Virus record (IMG/VR): IMGVR_UViG_3300043410_001708
Span: 1 to 64,000 of that record
DNA: 64,000 bases
Source: a virus
Strand: one strand, 5' to 3'
Below are positions 46,461 through 58,597 of this stretch, piece by piece. Position 1 is the first letter of the stretch. Every line of letters starts with the position of its first letter. The notes below the pieces were generated by a model, which was not told the DNA's origin, ran no database searches, and saw only the letters and a program-made list of their open reading frames with translations. The translations under genes were made by a program, and so were the position numbers.

Positions 46461-46533
46461 TGGTTGCGGGTCACGGAGTTGCACCGGAACTGAGGATTAT
46501 GAGCCCACTGTGATACTATTTCACCAACCCGCT
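46461..46533 (-). tRNA. initiator-like tRNA-fMet(CAT)
   Basis: Anticodon loop CTCATAA, GGG in the anticodon stem, and an unpaired A1-A72 end next to GCGGGT/ACCCGC are initiator features; CCA encoded. The T-loop (TGCAACT) and T-stem deviate from normal. Its 5' end overlaps the TAG stop of the next gene. Confidence 0.65.
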
Positions 46534-47204: not shown

Positions 47205-48632
47205 TCACAATACTTTGTAACGGTCATCCATGATGGTTTTAAGCATCACAGATTCTGGTGTAAAGGTTTCTAAGTCACCCGCCAACAGTGGTTTTACGAC
47301 TGCTGGTGAGAAACCAGATACCAATGCAGTACCAGAAGTGTCGAACTTTACTGGAGCGTTGCCGTATGCGGCATTCAAGTTCCAGAATACAACCTTTGGC
47401 AAAGTGTATCCTGCTTCTTTGTACTTACGTGCAATCATCTGCATAGCAGAGTCATCATGTCTAACGCAAGCGTTAAATTGCATGTCTGACAGAATCAATA
47501 CCATCGCTGGCATTTCTTCTTGTGGCACGCCACCTTTTACTGCTACATCAAGGATTTTTGCAAATGCCTTGTGTAGGTCGGTAGACATACCCCAATCAGA
47601 TTTAACCATTTGGTCAATCTTTTGATTGATGTTACCTTTCAAGTGCAACAATTCTGGATTGGTAGAGAAAGTTAGGAAGGTGTCCTTGAACTTGCCTTCA
47701 TTCTTATCTGCCAAGTATAGTCCCAAAGAGACTGCTACTTCCAAACAGGTTAGACCTGATTTGGAACCATAACCACCTGCAGCGCAGGTCATTGAACCAG
47801 AAACATCCACCAAAGGTAGAATGTTTGCATCGCCAACAAAGTTAGGCAAAGCCTCCCATTGTTTTTGCACCAAGTCCAATTCGGTCTTGTCGAATTTCAT
47901 GTAACCACCGATACGGCCTTTCAGCACATCGTATGGGAACACAGCACCTGCATTAACCTTAACTTCTGGATTATCACCCTTAACCAACGAAGCAACATAT
48001 GCTGCATAAGTTGGAGTGTTACGGTTAAAAGCCTTCTTGTAACGGGATGCCGCTACGGAAGGTACGTGTGAGAAATTGATGGAATCCCAGTCTTTCGCAC
48101 ACATTTGAGTTTCAACCACTTTGGTCATTTCAACCAAAGACTTACGGTAAAACTTTGGGGACATACCAAAGAACTGACGGATTTCAGCCGCTAGTTTACC
48201 TTGGCGAGGAGTCCACTTTGCAGCCAATCCATTCTTCGCACGAAGCGCATCACCCAACATAGTGAATGCTGCTGACTTCATAACATCAGAATCGAATACA
48301 AAAATGTCGTCCCAACGGCCCAATTCAGGAACCTTTGTCAACAATGCTTTTGCGGCTTCTACGTCATTCTTTTCCAAATAACGCAAGATAGTACGGAACG
48401 ATTCACGTTCACCGGCACCACCACGAGCATCACGTAACCAAGCAGCAACACGCAAAGCGAGTTCACGGTTTTCTGCCATTGCAGCTGCGAAAGCAGGCAC
48501 AATGTTTTTGCCACGGGAAGCACCTGCATTGTAGAACAAATCTACAACTGCATTAGCAGTGGACTTACGAGCCTTCATACCGTTTGCGGTACGGGCATCT
48601 TGATTAACAACGGCATCTACAAAAGTTGACAT
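47205..48632 (-). CDS. Ro60-like HEAT/vWA protein (DUF2828 family), 475 aa
   Basis: N-terminal helical-repeat region (NAVVDLFYNAGASRG, ALRVAAWLRDARGGAGERE, VPELGRWDDIFVF) as in the TROVE/Ro family, and a C-terminal vWA domain with MIDAS PLVDVSGSMT, STDLHKAF and ILSDMQFNA. DUF2828 proteins occur in viruses and plants. Ro proteins bind the ends of misfolded RNAs and Y RNAs. Here it is the only long gene inside an array of tRNAs and other structured RNAs, transcribed from the same promoter as two of them. Confidence 0.75.
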   Translation of the reverse strand: MSTFVDAVVNQDARTANGMKARKSTANAVVDLFYNAGASRGKNIVPAFAAAMAENRELALRVAAWLRDARGGAGERESFRTILRYLEKNDVEAAKALLTKVPELGRWDDIFVFDSDVMKSAAFTMLGDALRAKNGLAAKWTPRQGKLAAEIRQFFGMSPKFYRKSLVEMTKVVETQMCAKDWDSINFSHVPSVAASRYKKAFNRNTPTYAAYVASLVKGDNPEVKVNAGAVFPYDVLKGRIGGYMKFDKTELDLVQKQWEALPNFVGDANILPLVDVSGSMTCAAGGYGSKSGLTCLEVAVSLGLYLADKNEGKFKDTFLTFSTNPELLHLKGNINQKIDQMVKSDWGMSTDLHKAFAKILDVAVKGGVPQEEMPAMVLILSDMQFNACVRHDDSAMQMIARKYKEAGYTLPKVVFWNLNAAYGNAPVKFDTSGTALVSGFSPAVVKPLLAGDLETFTPESVMLKTIMDDRYKVL

Positions 48633-48657
48633 AACTTACTCCTCATAAAAAAACAAC

Positions 48658-48772
48658 AGAATACATTTTTTAGCGCACTACCAATTGTGCTATTCACGCC
48701 GAAGCGTAAAACAGGATTCGAACCTGTAACCTCTCCGTTATAAGCGGAAAAATTGTTTGCTGTGAGTATTCT
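48658..48772 (-). ncRNA. scaffold RNA copy 4 (holds the permuted tRNA-Ile)
   Basis: Closing stem AGAATAC/GTATTCT (48766-48772 with 48658-48664), CAGCAA box inside the 5' strand, GTTGT after the 3' strand. The interior is a circularly permuted tRNA. The stem sequence differs from the other copies but stays fully paired. Confidence 0.75.
48673..48748 (-). tRNA. circularly permuted tRNA-Ile(TAT)
   Basis: In transcript order: anticodon arm TCCG-CTTATAA-CGGA (48734-48748), T-arm ACAGG-TTCGAAT-CCTGT (48711-48727), acceptor 3' strand TTTACGC (48704-48710), a UUCG linker (48700-48703), acceptor 5' strand GCGTGAA (48693-48699), and D-arm with AATTGGTA loop (48675-48690). All elements of a tRNA are there but the 3' half comes first. 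The seven acceptor pairs are intact (one G-U). No CCA is encoded. Confidence 0.75.
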
Positions 48773-48781
48773 AAAAACAAC

Positions 48782-48932
48782 AGGTTAGCTTTCTACTTTT
48801 TGTTTACAGTGAGAAATCGAAACTCACCTTCGTTAGGACCATTTCAATAAACACCTTCAAAGGTCGAAACCTCCAGTGTTTACCATAGTTACCTAACAGT
48901 TCAGTATTATTGAATAATGCTGTAACTAACCT
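48782..48932 (-). ncRNA. scaffold RNA copy 5 (large interior domain)
   Basis: Closing stem AGGTTAG/CTAACCT (48926-48932 with 48782-48788), CAGCA box, GTTGT tail. Inside, GTTAGG/CCTAAC encloses TAAACAC/GTGTTTA and a UUCG-capped AGGT/ACCT hairpin; a T-arm-like GTGAG...CTCAC hairpin follows. Confidence 0.65.
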
Positions 48933-48961
48933 AAAACCTTTTCAATCTTTCAATACTGTGT

Positions 48962-48990
48962 ATTGTAACACAAAAATTTGTTGTAGTCAA
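48962..48990 (-). promoter_or_regulatory. sigma70 promoter of scaffold RNAs 5/4 and the Ro-like gene
   Basis: TTGACT (48985-48990), TACAAT (48962-48967), 17-bp spacer; a GTATGT/ACATAC hairpin lies just upstream. Confidence 0.7.
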
Positions 48991-49019
48991 GCAGTATGTT
49001 GTAAACATACCACAATATT

Positions 49020-49093
49020 TGGTGCCCCATGACAGAATCGAACTGCCGTACCCGGATTACAAAACCGGTGTAATACCATTATACTAATAGGGC
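49020..49093 (-). tRNA. tRNA-Thr(TGT)
   Basis: GCCCTAT/ATGGGGC acceptor, anticodon loop TTTGTAA, encoded ACCA. Confidence 0.9.
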
Positions 49094-49101
49094 AAAAAAC
49101 T

Positions 49102-49176
49102 TGGAGCGGGTAGTGGGAATCGAACCCACAACTAAACCTTGGCAAGGTCTTGTGTTACCACTAGCACCATACCCGC
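49102..49176 (-). tRNA. tRNA-Gly(GCC)
   Basis: GCGGGTA/TACCCGC acceptor, anticodon loop TTGCCAA, encoded TCCA. First product of the promoter at 49186-49214, whose start is only a few bases upstream. Confidence 0.92.
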
Positions 49177-49185
49177 ATCATGTGT

Positions 49186-49214
49186 ATTATATATGCTTTA
49201 CAAACAATTGTCAA
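49186..49214 (-). promoter_or_regulatory. perfect sigma70 promoter for tRNA-Gly/Thr
   Basis: TTGACA (49209-49214), TATAAT (49186-49191), 17-bp spacer on the minus strand. Confidence 0.85.
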
Positions 49215-49234
49215 GCACATTTTTAAAAAATATT

Positions 49235-49318
49235 TGGTACGAGTAACCGGAGTCGAACCGGTACGCACAAGGCGGCAGATTTTAAGTCTGCTGGGTCTAC
49301 CAATTCCCCCATACTCGC
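49235..49318 (-). tRNA. tRNA-Leu(TAA)
   Basis: Class II tRNA; GCGAGTA/TACTCGT acceptor (G-U at 1-72), anticodon loop CTTAAAA, encoded ACCA. Confidence 0.92.
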
Positions 49319-49319
49319 A

Positions 49320-49904
49320 TCACATGGCAGGTCCGTTTCCATTACGGAAACCGACCTCACCACCTTCTTCTTTGATTCGTTTCATAACATCTTCAAAAAG
49401 AATAGGACGAAAATCTGTTTGTTCAACACAAACACAATGATAACGAACATCTGGTGTGTCCAGTTCTTGACCTCCGTTCCATGTCATCATCACACGACCT
49501 GTATGAAGGTGACCGTGAATGTTTGTTCCGAAACGACCAAGACTGGCGGGATGAATTGGAATATGTGAAAGAATCATTCCGTTCATTACATGATACGCAC
49601 GAAGTTCACGGAAGTGTATTCTATATTCATCATCACGGAAGATATCGTGGTTACCACGAATAAGAACTTTATCACCGTTAAGTCTATGCATAATGCTAAG
49701 TGCTTTACGATTGATTACAACATCACCAAGATGATATACTTTATCAGTTGGCTTTACTGTTTCGTTCCAACGCTTAACCATTTCTTCATCCATTTCATTT
49801 GGATCGGTCCATGGTCTAATCTTTTCACCTGTTATGGAGTCGGTGAATCTACACACACCAGCGTGACCAAAGTGTGTGTCACTTACTAAAAATACTGATG
49901 GCAT
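49320..49904 (-). CDS. calcineurin-like metallophosphoesterase
   Basis: Start at MPSVFLVSDTHFGH with AGGAG upstream. The metal-ligand series is complete: DTHFGH, LGDVV, RGNHD, SHIPIH and GHLH. Such enzymes hydrolyse phosphodiesters or phosphomonoesters; the phage substrate is unknown. Position between tRNA-Leu and tRNA-Arg could point to RNA 2',3'-phosphate or end processing (speculative). Confidence 0.85.
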   Translation of the reverse strand: MPSVFLVSDTHFGHAGVCRFTDSITGEKIRPWTDPNEMDEEMVKRWNETVKPTDKVYHLGDVVINRKALSIMHRLNGDKVLIRGNHDIFRDDEYRIHFRELRAYHVMNGMILSHIPIHPASLGRFGTNIHGHLHTGRVMMTWNGGQELDTPDVRYHCVCVEQTDFRPILFEDVMKRIKEEGGEVGFRNGNGPAM

Positions 49905-49922
49905 AATAAACTCCTGAAAAAA

Positions 49923-49997
49923 TGGCCCGGCGTGAGGGAATCGAACCCCCATTCGCACTTTAGAAGAATGCTGTCCTATCCATTGAACGAACGCCAG
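49923..49997 (-). tRNA. tRNA-Arg(TCT)
   Basis: CTGGCGT/ACGCCGG acceptor, anticodon loop CTTCTAA, encoded GCCA. Confidence 0.9.
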
Positions 49998-50002
49998 AAA
50001 AA

Positions 50003-50443
50003 TCATACTCGGATGTATTCGTAATTAACTGTTTCTTCATTTTCTCTAAAAACAATAGCGCCGTTCTTCAAGTGAAAACGCTTTGCCATTTCAGTTTTTG
50101 GAGATAATGTCACAAATCTTTTTATGTATGGCATATTATTTTCTATGTGTGATACTGCATCAAATATAAGTGTTCCACCAGCACCTGGTGCATAACTCCA
50201 TATTGTATAAAATACCGCAATCTCTGGATCGTTTACCTTTTCAAACAATTCAGATTCTTTTGTCGGAACATTTGTCTGATAACTTACGCATGTGATTGCT
50301 AATACTTTACCATTTGTATCCCGAAGAACAAAAATATCTTTGTTATTACCTACTCTTTCCGTAGTTGGAATGTTAGGCCTGACAGGATCTTCATCCAATA
50401 AATTAAAAAAACTATCTGTGATGGATTTTATAATATGTAACAT
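50003..50443 (-). CDS. hypothetical protein, possibly GNAT-like, 146 aa
   Basis: Strand-helix pattern with FVLRDTNGKVLAITCVSY, a glycine-rich APGAGGTLIFDAV and MAKRFHLKNGAIVF resembles an acetyltransferase fold, but the acetyl-CoA loop is not canonical. It lies between two tRNA genes. Confidence 0.5.
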   Translation of the reverse strand: MLHIIKSITDSFFNLLDEDPVRPNIPTTERVGNNKDIFVLRDTNGKVLAITCVSYQTNVPTKESELFEKVNDPEIAVFYTIWSYAPGAGGTLIFDAVSHIENNMPYIKRFVTLSPKTEMAKRFHLKNGAIVFRENEETVNYEYIRV

Positions 50444-50459
50444 GATAACTTAAATATAA

Positions 50460-50536
50460 TGGTGCCCCAGAGGAGACTCGAACTCCTAAAATTTGGTTTC
50501 TAAGACCAACACGTATACCAATTCCGTCACCGGGGC
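50460..50536 (-). tRNA. tRNA-Leu(TAG), short variable arm
   Basis: GCCCCGG/CTGGGGC acceptor, anticodon loop CTTAGAA, encoded ACCA. The variable region is only about five bases, unusual for tRNA-Leu. Confidence 0.88.
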
Positions 50537-50549
50537 AATAAATACTTAT

Positions 50550-50774
50550 ATGATACCTTACGAACAAAGACAAACAGTAAAACCACTTTATGAGTTATTC
50601 TCAAATGAAACATATGTGCCTCATGCTTATTATTGTATTGAATCTGATTTTATCGAATCATATGTTACTGAGATAAAATCTTTTAATGATGATGAAATAT
50701 ATATTCAACCTGAAAAAGAGTTTGTCTTAACAACATTAAAACAAGTTGGTGCTCCTACTAAGAATCGAACTTAG
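50550..50774 (+). CDS. possible plus-strand 74-aa protein within the tRNA array
   Basis: MIPYEQRQTVKPLYELFSN and an acidic FNDDEIYIQPEKEF segment look coding, and no other feature explains 50537-50745. There is no clear ribosome-binding site, and the end runs antisense into tRNA-Thr. Treated as tentative. Confidence 0.4.
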   Translation: MIPYEQRQTVKPLYELFSNETYVPHAYYCIESDFIESYVTEIKSFNDDEIYIQPEKEFVLTTLKQVGAPTKNRT

Positions 50775-50820
50775 GATACATCCTTACCATGGATGTGGTA
50801 TGCCATTTACCTATAAGAGC
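50747..50820 (-). tRNA. tRNA-Thr(GGT)
   Basis: GCTCTTA/TAGGAGC acceptor, anticodon loop ATGGTAA, encoded ACCA. Confidence 0.9.
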
Positions 50821-50825
50821 ATGAT

Positions 50826-50900
50826 TGGTGGGTCGTCAGAGAATCAAACTCTGTTCTTCCGGTTAAGAGCCGGTTGCTTCATCACTTAAGCTTACAACCC
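50826..50900 (-). tRNA. tRNA-Lys(CTT)
   Basis: GGGTTGT/ACGACCC acceptor, anticodon loop CTCTTAA, encoded ACCA. Confidence 0.9.
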
Positions 50901-50903
50901 ATA

Positions 50904-50980
50904 TGGTACCCAAGGTGGGATTCGAGCCCACATAATCTTGCTTTTGAGACAAGCACGTATACCAATTCCGTCACTTGGGT
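50904..50980 (-). tRNA. tRNA-Leu(CAA)
   Basis: ACCCAAG/CTTGGGT acceptor, anticodon loop CTCAAAA, encoded ACCA, short variable arm like tRNA-Leu(TAG). Confidence 0.9.
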
Positions 50981-50989
50981 ATATACAAC

Positions 50990-51086
50990 AGGATAGTTTT
51001 TTTACAGTGGGAATTGAACCCACAAGGTTTGCTTAGAAGGCAAATTGCGAACCATTCGCATGTGAATTTTTTGCTGAACCTATCCT
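50990..51086 (-). ncRNA. scaffold RNA copy 1 (holds a tRNA-Arg-like fold)
   Basis: Closing stem AGGATAG/CTATCCT (51080-51086 with 50990-50996), CAGCAA box, GTTGT tail. The interior is a tRNA-like RNA in normal order. Confidence 0.75.
51001..51066 (-). tRNA. tRNA-Arg(TCT)-like fold inside scaffold RNA
   Basis: D-arm TGCGAATGGTTCGCA, anticodon arm TTTGC-CTTCTAA-GCAAA and T-arm GTGGG-TTCAATT-CCCAC are intact. The acceptor is weak (TTCACA/TGTAAA with a C-A mismatch) and no CCA is encoded. It duplicates the anticodon of the tRNA at 49923. Confidence 0.6.
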
Positions 51087-51092
51087 AAAACT

Positions 51093-51168
51093 TGGTGCTG
51101 CCTAGTAGAATCGAACTACTTTCCGAGGTTCTTCAGACCCCTGCTATGACCACATCAGCTAAAGCAGC
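51093..51168 (-). tRNA. tRNA-Phe(GAA)
   Basis: GCTGCTT/AGGCAGC acceptor, anticodon loop CTGAAGA, encoded ACCA. Confidence 0.9.
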
Positions 51169-51176
51169 ATATTGAA

Positions 51177-51343
51177 TTTGTAAGTATTGGGACCTCCCTC
51201 ATTTCCCAACATTTTACCGGTATTTTCTGTGAAGCGGCCGACCGGTTAGAGGTACGTAGTAATAGTTGATACTTGGCATCGGCAAAGCACTATCCTCATT
51301 CTTGTATGCCTACAAAAACTTTCTCAACATCTACACTTACAAA
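51177..51343 (-). ncRNA. structured ~167-nt RNA between tRNA-Phe and tRNA-Val
   Basis: Closed by a 9-bp stem TTTGTAAGT/ACTTACAAA (51335-51343 with 51177-51185). Internal hairpins include TTGTA/TACAA, GATAGT/ACTATT around the centre, and TTGGGA/TCCCAA near the 3' end. No ORF and no tRNA fold. Confidence 0.6.
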
Positions 51344-51346
51344 ACT

Positions 51347-51421
51347 TGGTACCTTGTGACGGGATCGAACCGCCGACCTTCTCCTTGTAAGGGAGACACT
51401 CTACCGCTGAGTTAACAAGGC
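51347..51421 (-). tRNA. tRNA-Val(TAC)
   Basis: GCCTTGT/ACAAGGT acceptor (G-U at 1-72), anticodon loop CTTACAA, encoded ACCA. Confidence 0.9.
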
Positions 51422-51434
51422 ATAAAATTTACTT

Positions 51435-51509
51435 TGGGGAGATATATGAGAATCGAACTCATGATAACGGAATCACAACCCGTGGTTTTGCCACTAAACT
51501 AATATCTCC
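51435..51509 (-). tRNA. tRNA-His(GTG)
   Basis: Anticodon GTG with the extra G-1 opposite C73 and encoded CCA. The acceptor helix continues into the flanks to give an 18-bp perfect inverted repeat (51428-51445/51502-51519). Confidence 0.9.
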
Positions 51510-51557
51510 CCAAAGTAAACTTTGGAATTTTTAACCGTGTTTATTCACGGGGGTCTG

Positions 51558-52046
51558 TTAGACCTGCAAAGCTTCTTGTTCTGCCAAGATTCTTTTCAAT
51601 CTGTCAGCACAAAAACTTGCAGCTGGTGCGTCTGGTTTAACCATAGGTGTCATGTTACATGTACCCTTGATATAACCAATCGCTTGTTGTACAACACATG
51701 AACTTCCGTACAAGTCATCTTTGTTTAAGTCCAAATGAACTTCAACATGGAAATCTTCTAATACATCAGCCAAGTCTTGGAACAATTCTGAAACCTTATA
51801 CACTTCGGTCATTAACCGCATTGCAGGTTTACTTTTCTTATGGTCATAATCCAACTCACGTTGAACGAAACCAAAAATCTTACAACCATGGCGGCCATCA
51901 ATATGAACTACGACAGCCAAAGCATAGTCTGCATACCATACACCGTTTACACGGATACGTTCTGAGTCAGCACCCAAATATACTTTCGTATCTGGTCCTT
52001 GACTTGCAAGGAATTGCTTAACTTCTTGTATGTCGAACTTTTTCAT
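51558..52046 (-). CDS. DUF458/YkuK-like RNase H-fold nuclease
   Basis: Start at MKKFDIQEVKQF, with AGGTGA upstream. KVYLGADSERIRV is the first RNase H strand with its Asp, VEVHLDLNKDDLYGSS carries the second acidic site, and MVKPDAPAASFCADRL the C-terminal motif, as in the YkuK family. A nuclease gene between tRNA-His and tRNA-Trp invites a role in tRNA/ncRNA processing, which is inference. Confidence 0.75.
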   Translation of the reverse strand: MKKFDIQEVKQFLASQGPDTKVYLGADSERIRVNGVWYADYALAVVVHIDGRHGCKIFGFVQRELDYDHKKSKPAMRLMTEVYKVSELFQDLADVLEDFHVEVHLDLNKDDLYGSSCVVQQAIGYIKGTCNMTPMVKPDAPAASFCADRLKRILAEQEALQV

Positions 52047-52076
52047 ATCAATCACCTTTCTTTTTTTTACTAACAC

Positions 52077-52150
52077 TGGCATCCCGACAGGGACTCGAAC
52101 CCCGACCAACAGTTTTGGAGACTGGTATGCTGCCATTACACTATCGAGAT
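52077..52150 (-). tRNA. tRNA-Trp(CCA)
   Basis: ATCTCGA/TCGGGAT acceptor, anticodon loop CTCCAAA, encoded GCCA. Confidence 0.88.
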
Positions 52151-52160
52151 ATAATACAAC

Positions 52161-52219
52161 AGGATAGATTTTACTTTTCAAGTTACAAGTTTGAAGTATT
52201 TTATTGCTGTTACTATCCT
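52161..52219 (-). ncRNA. scaffold RNA copy 2 (minimal, 59 nt)
   Basis: Closing stem AGGATAG/CTATCCT, box CAGCAATAAA, a single internal hairpin (ACTT...AAGT) and a GTTGT tail. Same length as copy 3. Confidence 0.7.
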
Positions 52220-52224
52220 AAAAA

Positions 52225-52298
52225 TGGTCCTCAGAACAAGAATCGAACTTGTGATGGCCGGTTATCAGCCGACTGTTATACCATTTAACTATCCGAGG
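52225..52298 (-). tRNA. tRNA-Ile(GAT)
   Basis: CCTCGGA/TCTGAGG acceptor, anticodon loop CTGATAA, encoded ACCA. Confidence 0.9.
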
Positions 52299-52302
52299 AA
52301 TA

Positions 52303-52378
52303 TGGAGGGTCTTGAGGGATTCAAACCCCCGACCAATTGCTTCGTAGGCAACTACTCTGTTCACTGAGCTAAAGACCC
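52303..52378 (-). tRNA. tRNA-Arg(ACG)
   Basis: GGGTCTT/AAGACCC acceptor, anticodon loop CTACGAA, encoded TCCA. Confidence 0.9.
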
Positions 52379-52384
52379 ATAATC

Positions 52385-52459
52385 TGGTGGTTCAGGTGAG
52401 AATCGAACTCACACAAGGCACCGTATGAAGATGCTGCACTGCCACTATGCTACTGAACC
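52385..52459 (-). tRNA. tRNA-Met(CAT), elongator-like
   Basis: GGTTCAG/CTGAACC acceptor fully paired, anticodon loop TTCATAC, encoded ACCA. Could also be an Ile2 tRNA after lysidine modification. Confidence 0.85.
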
Positions 52460-52464
52460 AAATT

Positions 52465-52539
52465 TGGTGGACCGAGGGGGAATCGAACCCCCAACTGTGA
52501 CTTGCAAGGCCACTGTGTTCCCAATTATACCATCAGCCC
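52465..52539 (-). tRNA. tRNA-Ala(TGC)
   Basis: GGGCTGA/TCGGTCC acceptor, anticodon loop CTTGCAA, encoded ACCA. Confidence 0.9.
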
Positions 52540-52595
52540 AAATTTGTTGTTGACAATTTATCTCATTATACGCCGTCAACAAAGGCGAGTATTAC

Positions 52596-52669
52596 TGGTC
52601 TCGGTGGCAAGAATCGAACTTGCGCCACATGCTCCCAAAGCACGGATGATACCATTTCACCACACCGAG
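52596..52669 (-). tRNA. tRNA-Pro(TGG)
   Basis: CTCGGTG/CACCGAG acceptor, anticodon loop TTTGGGA, encoded ACCA. Confidence 0.9.
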
Positions 52670-52679
52670 AAAATACAAC

Positions 52680-52738
52680 AGGATCGTTTTTGTCGCTAGA
52701 CATCCAAAAGTTAGCTTGTTTATTGCTGAACCGATCCT
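52680..52738 (-). ncRNA. scaffold RNA copy 3 (minimal, 59 nt)
   Basis: Closing stem AGGATCG/CGATCCT, box GTTCAGCAATAAA, one internal GCTA/TAGC hairpin, GTTGT tail. The A-to-C change at position 6 of the stem is compensated on the other strand. Confidence 0.7.
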
Positions 52739-52900: not shown

Positions 52901-53097
52901 AAATATTAGTACAAGCTACTGATTTTCCACGTCAGCCCTTGATTGAGCGGTTTCTCTGTCCATCCCTTTTATCTGGTACCTGTGTGCAGAGGGATACTGC
53001 CTATCAGAGCCTGAGTATTTCTCTCGCTAACGGTTTTCTGCCACCGGATCTCTATCGTTAATCAAACGCTACTTTAACGAAAAGTAGTAACGAGATT
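52901..53097 (-). ncRNA. structured ~195-nt spacer RNA between tRNA-Tyr and tRNA-Asp
   Basis: Read 5' to 3' on the minus strand: an ATCTCGTTA/TAACG...GAGAT helix capped by CTACTT-TTCGTTA-AAGTAG (a T-arm-like hairpin), a CGGT/ACCG hairpin, ATACT/AGTAT, ATCCCT/AGGGAT and CTGA/TCAG hairpins. No ORF. It lacks an overall closing stem. Confidence 0.45.
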
Positions 53098-53267: not shown

Positions 53268-53273
53268 ATAATT

Positions 53274-53401
53274 TACCATTTGTTTTGCTGACGCACTATA
53301 TGCTATGCTTCAACGGAATAGCTGCAGCGTTACCGTTTATTAACATAGTTACTCAGCATTGAACGTTTCTGCTGTGGCTTACATCAGCAAAACAAATGGT
53401 A
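53274..53401 (-). ncRNA. stem-closed ~126-nt RNA (Y-RNA-like shape)
   Basis: Ends pair over 18 bp (53274-53291 with 53384-53401; core TTTGCTGA/TCAGCAAA). The interior has hairpins CAGCA/TGCTG and CTATG(...AACGG/CCGTT...)CATAG. The outer four pairs include the CCA end of tRNA-Glu, so the free RNA probably has a 13-bp stem. Confidence 0.6.
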
Positions 53402-58221: not shown

Positions 58222-58597
58222 TATTCTTCACTCCGCCTGTATCTATTTTTGTTTTTATATCAGCGATTTGTTCATCGGTGAGGATACGTAGGGCTTCTTT
58301 AGCCTTGGAGTTTGAATACCCAAAATAGGTTTTCACACATTCAATATCCTTCTCAGAATCAGCTTTTTGCCATGGAACGAATTTACGTTTCATAGGCCTG
58401 ATACTATTTAGAAGATACTGGTATTGCATGTCCTTATCGATTCCAGGCCACAGGTTCATGTCATTGGCGTACAAGACACAATCTAAATGGTTGGACAACG
58501 ACCTATTGATTAGGAAAGGTGCATAATCTTTGAAGTCCAATTCACCATCCGGCACCTTCTTTCTCAGGATGTAATCGGCATAATCGAACGGACTCAT
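58208..58597 (-). CDS. 62: clamp-loader small subunit (gp62-like)
   Basis: FDYADYILRKKVPDGE...LSNHLDCVLYANDMN matches gp62, and the position between 44 and regA is that of T4. 129 aa against 187 in T4. It overlaps gene 44 by 4 bp. Forms a 4:1 complex with gp44. Confidence 0.85.
   Translation of the reverse strand: MSPFDYADYILRKKVPDGELDFKDYAPFLINRSLSNHLDCVLYANDMNLWPGIDKDMQYQYLLNSIRPMKRKFVPWQKADSEKDIECVKTYFGYSNSKAKEALRILTDEQIADIKTKIDTGGVKNNDRH

What the first reader, a model, noticed from the sequence alone, without database searches (positions are those of the whole stretch)
48658..52738. Five-copy RNA scaffold with covarying closing stems
Copies at 48658-48772, 48782-48932, 50990-51086, 52161-52219 and 52680-52738 share: a 5' TTTT leader (TTTTAG start), a 7-bp closing stem, a CAGCA box a few bases in, and a 3' GTTGT tail. 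The stems read AGGATAG, AGGATCG, AGAATAC and AGGTTAG with full compensation on the other strand, which is direct evidence of RNA structure. The interiors range from a single hairpin (59 nt) to a complete tRNA fold. I know no described RNA class with this design. It could be a processing cassette, a carrier for tRNA-like payloads, or a mobile RNA element.
Basis: seen in the sequence. Interest (0 to 1): 0.88.

Follow-up and report, generated by a model that had tools for sequence, protein, structure and literature searches.

The report
Phage Y RNAs mimicking tRNA pieces
A phage carries five small RNAs that share one stem, probably a docking site for a protein, but display different imitation pieces of transfer RNA, next to a gene for the ring protein Ro60; relatives occur in other phages, including one that grows on the laboratory strain E. 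coli K-12, so their role can be tested.

Summary
Five copies lie on the minus strand among tRNA genes. With them I collected 385 distinct elements from virus contigs. The 7-bp closing stem is real: 374 of 448 five-prime halves have an exact Watson-Crick partner followed by G, against 1.1% when stems are swapped.

The design is not wholly unprecedented. ORF 47205-48632, starting 20 nt after the first element's tail, is a Ro60/Rsr-like protein by predicted fold. The first element's tRNA-like module matches Rfam YrlA (bacterial Y RNA) at E 1.7e-5, below that family's cut-off. The Ro60 gene is in 20 of 22 large contigs with elements, and every measured pair is on one strand. Around Ro60 genes of isolated phages the motif occurs in 10 of 14 loci (48 hits, 4.1 expected), among them Listeria A511 and KVP40. 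E. coli K-12 phage garuso has four copies.

What looks new is the payload repertoire: permuted tRNAs with sealed acceptor stems, stand-alone anticodon hairpins, and ordinary-looking tRNAs with the hairpin inserted.

Best reading: Ro60-bound Y-type RNAs that display tRNA parts, probably as decoys or baits for tRNA-acting enzymes. Ro60 binding and decoy function are inferred, not shown.

The parts
48653..48776 (-). Element A (open form, 115 nt core 48658-48772): leader 48773-48776, stem 5' strand 48766-48772 AGAATAC, CAGCA 48758-48762, stem 3' strand 48658-48664, tail 48653-48657
48675..48749 (-). Payload of A: circularly permuted tRNA-like module: anticodon arm 48733-48749 (loop CUUAUAA, Ile UAU type), T arm 48711-48727, acceptor stem sealed by a UUCG loop 48693-48710, D arm 48675-48690; no CCA
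   Evidence: Rfam YrlA 48647-48759, 36.5 bits, E 1.7e-5; in the alignment the model's outer stem does not coincide with the scaffold stem
48777..48936 (-). Element B (151 nt core 48782-48932): stem 48926-48932 / 48782-48788, CAGCA 48918-48922, tail 48777-48781; long branched payload with GUGAGUUUCGAUUUCUCAC arm 48809-48827, unassigned
50985..51090 (-). Element C (97 nt core 50990-51086): stem 51080-51086 / 50990-50996, CAGCA 51072-51076; payload in normal tRNA order without CCA: D arm 51047-51059, anticodon arm 51028-51044 (loop CUUCUAA, Arg UCU type), T arm 51007-51023
   Evidence: Rfam tRNA 50999-51067, 35.8 bits
52156..52223 (-). Element D (59 nt core 52161-52219): stem 52213-52219 / 52161-52167, CAGCA 52205-52209; payload is an anticodon-arm-like hairpin 52178-52194, loop CUUGUAA (Thr UGU type), with an A.C mismatch closing the loop
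52675..52742 (-). Element E (59 nt core 52680-52738): stem 52732-52738 / 52680-52686, CAGCA 52724-52728; payload hairpin 52695-52715, not a clean 5-bp/7-nt anticodon arm
47205..48632 (-). Ro60/Rsr-like protein, 475 aa (DUF2828 + DUF7788; phrog_850 RNA-binding protein), starting 20 nt downstream of the tail of element A
   Evidence: Pfam; PHROG; AlphaFold2; Foldseek top hits 2nvo Rsr and 1yvr Ro autoantigen; VIA Z 16.2 to 9kop TROVE domain

Best explanation
These are Y RNA-type RNAs of phages that encode a DUF2828-type Ro60 (Rsr) protein. The shared part (AG-stem, three bases, CNGCA box, A-rich strand opposite) is the docking stem for the phage's own Ro60 (inferred). The variable interior is a display module resembling one part of a tRNA: a permuted tRNA with a sealed acceptor end, D/anticodon/T arms without CCA, or an isolated anticodon hairpin. 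A closed form of the same hairpin (often a GAYA loop) is inserted into otherwise normal-looking tRNAs. In A to E the acceptor end is sealed, lacks CCA or is absent, so these mimics could not be charged. Most likely use: Ro60 keeps the mimics stable, and they act as decoys or baits for enzymes that act on tRNA, foremost host tRNA-cleaving defences. Shown here: structure, tRNA mimicry, genomic link to Ro60. Inferred: binding by Ro60, expression in this phage, decoy function. My odds: Ro60-associated Y-type RNAs 0.85; decoy or bait for tRNA-cleaving or other tRNA-acting enzymes 0.45. The confidence below is for the first part.
For: Stem. Position: 377 of 385 elements lie within 2 kb of a tRNA gene, and all 4003 element-tRNA pairs within 2 kb are on the same strand. 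Ro60 link: ORF homologs in 68 of 184 fetched loci with elements against 7 of 113 without (the latter include bacterial contigs); 174 of 174 ORF-element pairs same strand; in 32 of 68 loci the nearest element ends within 50 nt of the open frame. In the 26 contigs of at least 100 kb printed, homologs in 20 of 22 with elements and 0 of 4 without, elements being sought only in the fetched loci (Fisher p 0.001). In 14 isolate loci around the homolog, 48 motif hits against 4.1 expected, 10 of 14 with a hit; in seven comparison loci 4 hits against 2.6 expected. Elements abut the Ro60 gene in BUCT-ZZ01, APT65, Campylobacter CP8 and Listeria A511. YrlA-like score of the permuted module: element A 36.5 bits and four of eight further loci tried, 36.7-40.4 bits. 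tRNA mimicry: 59 of 118 against 0 of 118 with one shuffle each; native anticodon loops in 86 of 226 short payloads against a mean of 0.7 and maximum of 3 in 100 shuffles. Expression in a probable relative: Listeria phage CKA15 has three highly transcribed regions within 2 kb upstream of its Rsr homolog, which its authors suggest may be Y RNAs (PMC12282133, passages). PMC7790460 (passages) suggests the YrlA tRNA-like domain could competitively inhibit an anticodon nuclease.
Against: No binding, expression or phenotype data for these elements. YrlA scores are below Rfam's gathering score of 69; four of eight loci with permuted elements gave no YrlA match at E 0.001, and for element A the model's outer stem does not fall on the scaffold stem. 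Four of 14 Ro60 isolate loci show no motif within 5-12 kb (OC, Rumpelstiltskin, CBB, SEP9); in DLP_6 the count is weak (3 against 1.1). The tRNA regions of three homolog-bearing phages fetched away from the Ro60 gene (CBB, XbC2, phiM12) have none. Two large contigs with elements (L109, L170) show no Ro60 homolog. 140 of 226 short payloads lack an exact native anticodon loop. Element B and payloads over 150 nt are unassigned. The whole-contig test rests on only four element-free contigs. PMC7790460 reports that YrlA itself is not cut by the nuclease it studied.
Confidence: 0.8

Rival explanations
1. RYPER-like tether: the RNAs hold phage Ro60 on a host or phage exoribonuclease such as PNPase, and the tRNA-like modules only recruit it, redirecting decay of structured RNA during infection.
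For: Known role of Rsr and Y RNA in Deinococcus as described in PMC8394870 and PMC7790460 (passages) and proposed for CKA15 in PMC12282133.
Against: Does not explain why one genome carries several different modules, or why stand-alone anticodon hairpins favour U36-A37 loops.
Confidence: 0.3
2. Bait for tRNA-modifying enzymes: the modules are substrates that titrate or capture host modification enzymes.
For: YrlA is reported as a substrate of DusA and TruB (PMC8394870). Anticodon payloads are almost only U36-A37 (73) or A36-A37 (12) of 86, against 1055 and 590 of 3153 native tRNAs (p 1e-22); these classes carry t6A37 and i6A37 (recalled).
Against: The same bias could reflect nuclease targets or AU-rich composition. 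No modification data.
Confidence: 0.15
3. Functional permuted or split tRNA genes, matured by RNA circularisation and cutting as in some algae and archaea.
For: Some permuted payloads keep ACCA plus a linker between acceptor strands, for example L008, L037 and L048.
Against: Other acceptor stems are sealed by short loops without CCA, element A among them, and some anticodon loops are shortened (not counted). 231 of 385 elements are under 75 nt, too short for a tRNA plus scaffold.
Confidence: 0.05
4. Self-cleaving or processing cassette related to HDV-like theta ribozymes that sit at phage tRNA 3' ends.
For: The stem follows a tRNA 3' end by 5 nt in 138 and 6 nt in 45 of the 371 elements with an upstream same-strand tRNA.
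Against: No second helix after the stem: the tail does not covary with CAGCA; a 5-nt gap instead of a junction at the tRNA end; Rfam finds no ribozyme in the window region or in seven loci.
Confidence: 0.03
5. Mobile DNA element with imperfect inverted ends.
For: Multiple dispersed copies with inverted termini.
Against: Stem ends differ between copies but stay complementary; always in the tRNA orientation with near-fixed spacing; unrelated payloads; no transposase among the 10 window proteins scanned.
Confidence: 0.03

Closest known systems
Bacterial Y RNA YrlA (Rfam RF02553)
   Same: RNA ends pair into a stem; permuted tRNA-like module with T arm, sealed acceptor and D arm; encoded beside Ro60/Rsr; element A's module matches model positions 1-114
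   Different: 36-40 bits against a gathering score of 69; the model's outer stem does not coincide with the scaffold stem; another conserved motif (AG-stem, NNN, CNGCA); several copies per genome; lone anticodon hairpins and insertion into ordinary-looking tRNAs
Listeria phage CKA15 Rsr and putative Y RNAs (PMC12282133; passages read)
   Same: Rsr homolog downstream of the tRNA genes, with highly transcribed regions just upstream; in Listeria phage A511, a relative by my recall, three scaffold elements lie there
   Different: The passages read give no RNA structure, motif or payload. That CKA15's regions equal the A511 elements was not tested.
Caulobacter phage CcrColossus TROVE gene and upstream RNAs
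   Same: At least four tandem permuted tRNA-like RNAs upstream of a TROVE gene, seen by eye; three sub-threshold YrlA hits
   Different: Different stem sequence; no protein match to the window ORF in its genome at E 0.001
Theta ribozymes (PMC10879173; passages read)
   Same: Small structured RNAs next to phage tRNA 3' ends
   Different: HDV-like fold with the cleavage site at the tRNA end; these elements lack that layout
T5 and T4 stable RNAs of unknown function
   Same: Structured RNAs inside phage tRNA clusters
   Different: No scaffold motif in those RNAs (one chance-like hit on the other strand elsewhere in the T5 stretch) and no Ro60 homolog in T4 or T5

Membership tests
Rfam YrlA (RF02553) | Curated gathering score of 69 bits | tested here: not met
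   36.5 bits for element A; 36.7-40.4 in four of eight other loci
Y RNAs in the broad sense (Ro60-associated RNAs) | RNA ends pair to form a stem | tested here: met
   (true RNA ends not mapped)
Y RNAs in the broad sense (Ro60-associated RNAs) | Encoded next to a Ro60/Rsr gene | tested here: met
Y RNAs in the broad sense (Ro60-associated RNAs) | tRNA-like effector module (bacterial Y RNAs) | tested here: met
   59 of 118 payloads of 75-150 nt; the short elements carry only an anticodon-like arm or an unassigned hairpin
Y RNAs in the broad sense (Ro60-associated RNAs) | Physical binding to Ro60 through the stem | not testable with these tools
   Needs a biochemical assay
Ro60/Rsr protein (for ORF 47205-48632) | HEAT-like ring plus vWA domain | tested here: met
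   Model pLDDT 75.4, pTM 0.70; Foldseek top three are Ro60 proteins, E 8e-7 to 7e-5, TM 0.39-0.52 normalised by the query; VIA Z 11.3-16.2 for ten Ro60/TROVE chains, next chain 8.3
Ro60/Rsr protein (for ORF 47205-48632) | Metal-site (MIDAS) motif of the vWA domain, motif recalled | tested here: met
   D276, S278 and S280 invariant in 33 of 33 aligned sequences
Ro60/Rsr protein (for ORF 47205-48632) | Match to the Pfam TROVE model | tested here: not met
   DUF2828 and DUF7788 in 33 of 33; no TROVE entry listed at E up to 1. Filed as Ro60-like by fold, not as a member of that Pfam model
Theta ribozyme | HDV-like nested pseudoknot with catalytic junction and cleavage at the tRNA 3' end | tested here: not met
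   No paired second helix: the tail base varies freely; no ribozyme hit at gathering or to E 10 over the five copies
Permuted tRNA gene | Acceptor strands separated by a removable linker carrying CCA | tested here: inconclusive
   Some payloads keep ACCA plus linker, others are sealed by short loops; not counted

The most novel reading that the evidence does not exclude
Phages across several host groups carry a modular counter-defence: one Ro60 ring, possibly also packaged in the virion, loaded with a set of tRNA-part mimics (anticodon loops, elbow, acceptor minihelix), each an uncleavable or sacrificial target for a different tRNA-attacking defence. The set would be recombined like cassettes inside the tRNA array, so the payload list of a phage is a readable record of which tRNAs its hosts' defences attack.
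Probability: 0.35. Interest if true: 0.93.

Novelty: new variant of a known kind. Interest (0 to 1): 0.82.

Why it matters
Ro60 homologs of this type are in 672 of 50,697 phage records searched; in the 60 rows listed they are mostly called hypothetical or RNA-binding proteins, and their function in phages is open. The finding gives them a candidate RNA ligand with a short searchable motif, ties phage tRNA arrays and some annotated pseudo-tRNAs (KVP40, Citrobacter Ci1) to Ro60, and supplies a testable idea of what phage Y RNAs do. A laboratory system exists: Felixounavirus garuso, host E. coli K-12 MG1655, has the Ro60 gene followed by four elements.

Tried and rejected
Pseudoknot between CAGCA and GTTG: suggested by the five copies, rejected because the tail varies (GTTG, GTTA, GTTT) without change in the box. 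Theta or HDV-like ribozyme: considered because of the position at tRNA ends, rejected. Permuted functional tRNAs: not a general answer, since 231 of 385 elements are short. T4 rnaC/rnaD and T5 stable RNAs as relatives: no motif. Bacterial genomes: 26 stretches matched the 5' half; the relaxed detector hit 4 of 26, and only L284 looks convincing, so the family looks viral. blastn with single elements against phages gave mostly tRNA or chance hits but led to CcrColossus. RtcB and RNA ligase in the phage's own 106-kb record: none found; the record may be a fragment. Profile search of PDB sequences with the ORF alignment: no hit; only fold comparison showed Ro60.

The 385 elements (window's five included) were chosen from 438 stem pairs by CNGCA and a G tail; exact pairing and the first two letters AG were required, so their invariance says nothing. 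The unselected test is; of its 448 halves 74 had no partner, several in coding-like sequence. Short payloads: 231, 226 after removing duplicates. Native anticodon loops were those seen at least 5 times among 3153 tRNAs. The 14 isolate loci were picked by me from the homolog hit lists, not at random; flanks were 12 kb (six) or 5 kb (eight), cut at record ends in APT65 and SEP9. Some of their 48 hits look like chance (coding-like, wrong strand) and were left in the count. Three of the seven comparison loci had one or two such hits; XacN1, without a homolog, had 2 against 1.1 expected. One search also printed a Fisher test of 10 of 14 against 0 of 6 isolate loci; its zero was wrong and I do not use it. 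One comparison record, phiM12, does have a homolog elsewhere. Absence in print rests, open-licence PMC only; the key Y RNA papers (Chen 2014, Wang 2018, Sim 2018) were not held and are known to me only from citations and recall.


Full report
WHAT IS THERE. On the minus strand of a 106-kb virus record, five copies of one scaffold lie among tRNA genes; ARAGORN finds 28 in the window, all on that strand. In RNA sense the scaffold is: UUUU, a 7-bp stem beginning AG and ending CU, three bases, CAGCA(A), a variable payload, an A-rich stretch, the second stem strand, GUU. All five copies have leader, box and tail. Among 371 elements with an upstream same-strand tRNA the gap from the tRNA 3' end to the stem is 5 nt in 138 and 6 nt in 45.

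IS IT REAL. The least selected test takes 448 distinct five-prime halves and asks for an exact partner followed by G: 374 succeed, against a mean of 1.08% (maximum 2.1%) with stems swapped between elements and none with the stem reversed. In the alignment of 57 short elements five of seven pairs show changes on both sides; 94 double-change cells against 24.1 in shuffles, none of 500 shuffles as high. Those 57 were already required to pair and to begin with AG. Mutual information also shows a non-Watson-Crick covarying pair just inside the stem, which was not selected for.

THE PAYLOADS ARE PIECES OF tRNA. Of 118 payloads of 75-150 nt, ARAGORN sees a tRNA in 2 as they stand and a tRNA spanning the rejoined ends in 59 when the payload is closed into a circle across the scaffold, many end trims being tried; one dinucleotide shuffle of each gives 0 and 0. 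The order seen by eye is anticodon arm, T arm, acceptor stem sealed by a short loop, D arm; element A is one. Some keep ACCA and a linker between the acceptor strands, and some have the anticodon loop shortened. Of 226 distinct short payloads, 154 have a 5-bp/7-nt hairpin (36 expected from shuffles) and 86 carry a loop identical to one of 92 native anticodon loops seen at least 5 times in 3153 tRNAs of the same loci (mean 0.7, maximum 3 in 100 shuffles). Lys UUU (30), Thr UGU (19), Asn GUU (12), Arg UCU (6), Ser UGA and Tyr GUA (5 each) lead. 85 of 86 have U36-A37 or A36-A37, against 1645 of 3153 native loops. From memory these are loops that carry t6A or i6A.

A CLOSED FORM. The same hairpin, closed by a short loop (GACA and GATA, or six-base loops), gave 29 distinct hits in 24 loci. 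By eye most lie in genes that look like normal tRNAs with CCA, usually between D arm and anticodon arm, a few in acceptor minihelices ending in GCCA, and a few are chance. Examples in isolates are three of the five annotated tRNA pseudogenes in the KVP40 stretch and the one in Citrobacter phage Ci1. The window shows none by pattern search; one detector hit at 58554 on the other strand looks like chance.

THE PARTNER PROTEIN. The ORF right after element A matches DUF2828 and DUF7788 and PHROG 850, RNA-binding protein. Its AlphaFold2 model (pLDDT 75.4, pTM 0.70) has as best Foldseek matches Deinococcus Rsr (2nvo), Ro autoantigen (1yvr) and a Ro60/La complex, E 8e-7 to 7e-5 with TM 0.39-0.52. With VIA-align ten Ro60/TROVE chains score Z 11.3-16.2, among them a Ro60 from Thermus phage phiLo, and the next chain 8.3. 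The vWA metal-site residues are invariant in 33 sequences. The Pfam TROVE model itself does not match.

THE LINK. Of the fetched loci, 68 of 184 with elements hold a homolog and 7 of 113 without; all 174 ORF-element pairs are on one strand, and in 32 of 68 loci the nearest element ends within 50 nt of the open frame (frames counted stop to stop). In the 26 printed contigs of 100 kb or more the homolog is in 20 of 22 with elements and 0 of 4 without, elements being sought only in the fetched loci (p 0.001). I then took 14 loci around the homolog in isolates, picked from the hit lists: 48 motif hits against 4.1 expected from Markov controls, 10 of 14 with at least one. In Aeromonas APT65 four elements, in Listeria A511 three, in Synechococcus BUCT-ZZ01 two and in Campylobacter CP8 one lie directly upstream of the Ro60 gene. 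In wV8 and in K-12 phage garuso (fetched later, not among the 14) four elements follow the Ro60 gene among the tRNAs. Misses: OC, Rumpelstiltskin, CBB, SEP9; and the tRNA regions of CBB, XbC2 and phiM12, which lie away from their Ro60 genes. Comparison tRNA regions (six records without the homolog, and phiM12) give 4 hits against 2.6 expected.

WHAT IT IS. Bacterial YrlA is described as an RNA of 90-150 nt whose ends pair into a stem that tethers the Rsr ring, with a tRNA-like domain (PMC8394870, passages). Element A matches the Rfam YrlA model at 36.5 bits, E 1.7e-5. The match rests on the T-acceptor-D module; the model's outer stem is placed beside, not on, the scaffold stem. Four of eight other loci tried match at 36.7-40.4 bits, one of them partially. 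All are below the gathering score of 69. So they are not members of Rfam YrlA by its own cut-off, but they have the layout and gene neighbourhood of Y RNAs. I file them as a separate phage Y-type family with its own conserved motif.

HOW IT PROBABLY WORKS. Shown: scaffold, tRNA mimicry, genomic link. Inferred: Ro60 binds the stem. Expression is supported only in a probable relative: Listeria phage CKA15 has three highly transcribed regions within 2 kb upstream of its Rsr homolog, and that protein was found by mass spectrometry in purified virions (PMC12282133, passages). In A511, a relative by my recall, three elements lie there, but I could not compare the two genomes. Function: sealed or CCA-less acceptor ends in A to E speak against a role as chargeable tRNAs there, and the wide choice of modules suggests targets that differ from case to case. 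Decoys or baits for tRNA-cleaving enzymes fit best; the Salmonella study PMC7790460 (passages) raised the same possibility for YrlA, while noting that YrlA was not a substrate of the nuclease it studied. A nuclease tether as in RYPER and a bait for modification enzymes remain open.

NOVELTY. Y RNAs with tRNA-like modules and phage Ro60 proteins are known (PMC12282133, PMC7824862, PMC7765460; passages). In the papers I could search I found no description of this motif, of stand-alone anticodon hairpins on a Y scaffold, of many modules in one genome, or of the hairpin inserted in tRNAs (searches listed under Tried and rejected). The main Y RNA papers could not be read, so part of this may be in print there.

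Noticed in passing
window 51169-51346, 52901-53097, 53268-53396 (-): Three spacers between tRNA genes fold into long closed structures (-39.8, -46.2, -39.5 kcal/mol) without the scaffold; the last has a 17-bp closing stem in the predicted fold. No Rfam match at gathering.
   Followed up: partly
window 48789-48917 (-), payload of element B; also L028, L008, L017, L039, L063: A recurring payload type with a GUGAGUUUCGA..UUCUCAC hairpin and an AAAAGUAG-like end that is not a recognisable tRNA part.
   Followed up: partly
L321 230-980 (Caulobacter phage CcrColossus): At least four tandem permuted tRNA-like RNAs with another stem sequence directly upstream of the TROVE gene, none annotated in the record.
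   Followed up: partly
L456 (phage T5 26000-48000): Eight annotated stable RNAs of unknown function in the tRNA cluster; none has the scaffold and T5 has no Ro60 homolog of this type.
   Followed up: partly
L239 5214 (-), L262 977 (+), L067 5657 (-) (positions on the scanned strand): Acceptor-stem minihelices ending in GCCA that hold only the hairpin, with no D, anticodon or T arm.
   Followed up: no
L112 6859-7094, L015 8827-9030, L096 10787-10996, L063 7839-8071 (positions on the scanned strand): Elements of 204-236 nt with large structured payloads that I could not assign; the Rfam matches at gathering in these loci are all to the tRNA family.
   Followed up: no
records behind H101, H107, H119 (CBB, Salmonella 7t3, Erwinia SNUABM_12): The Ro60 homolog is annotated as a structural protein in some jumbo phages, in line with its detection in CKA15 virions (PMC12282133).
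   Followed up: no
window 46464-46533 (-): A weak tRNA match (33.4 bits) not reported by ARAGORN.
   Followed up: no
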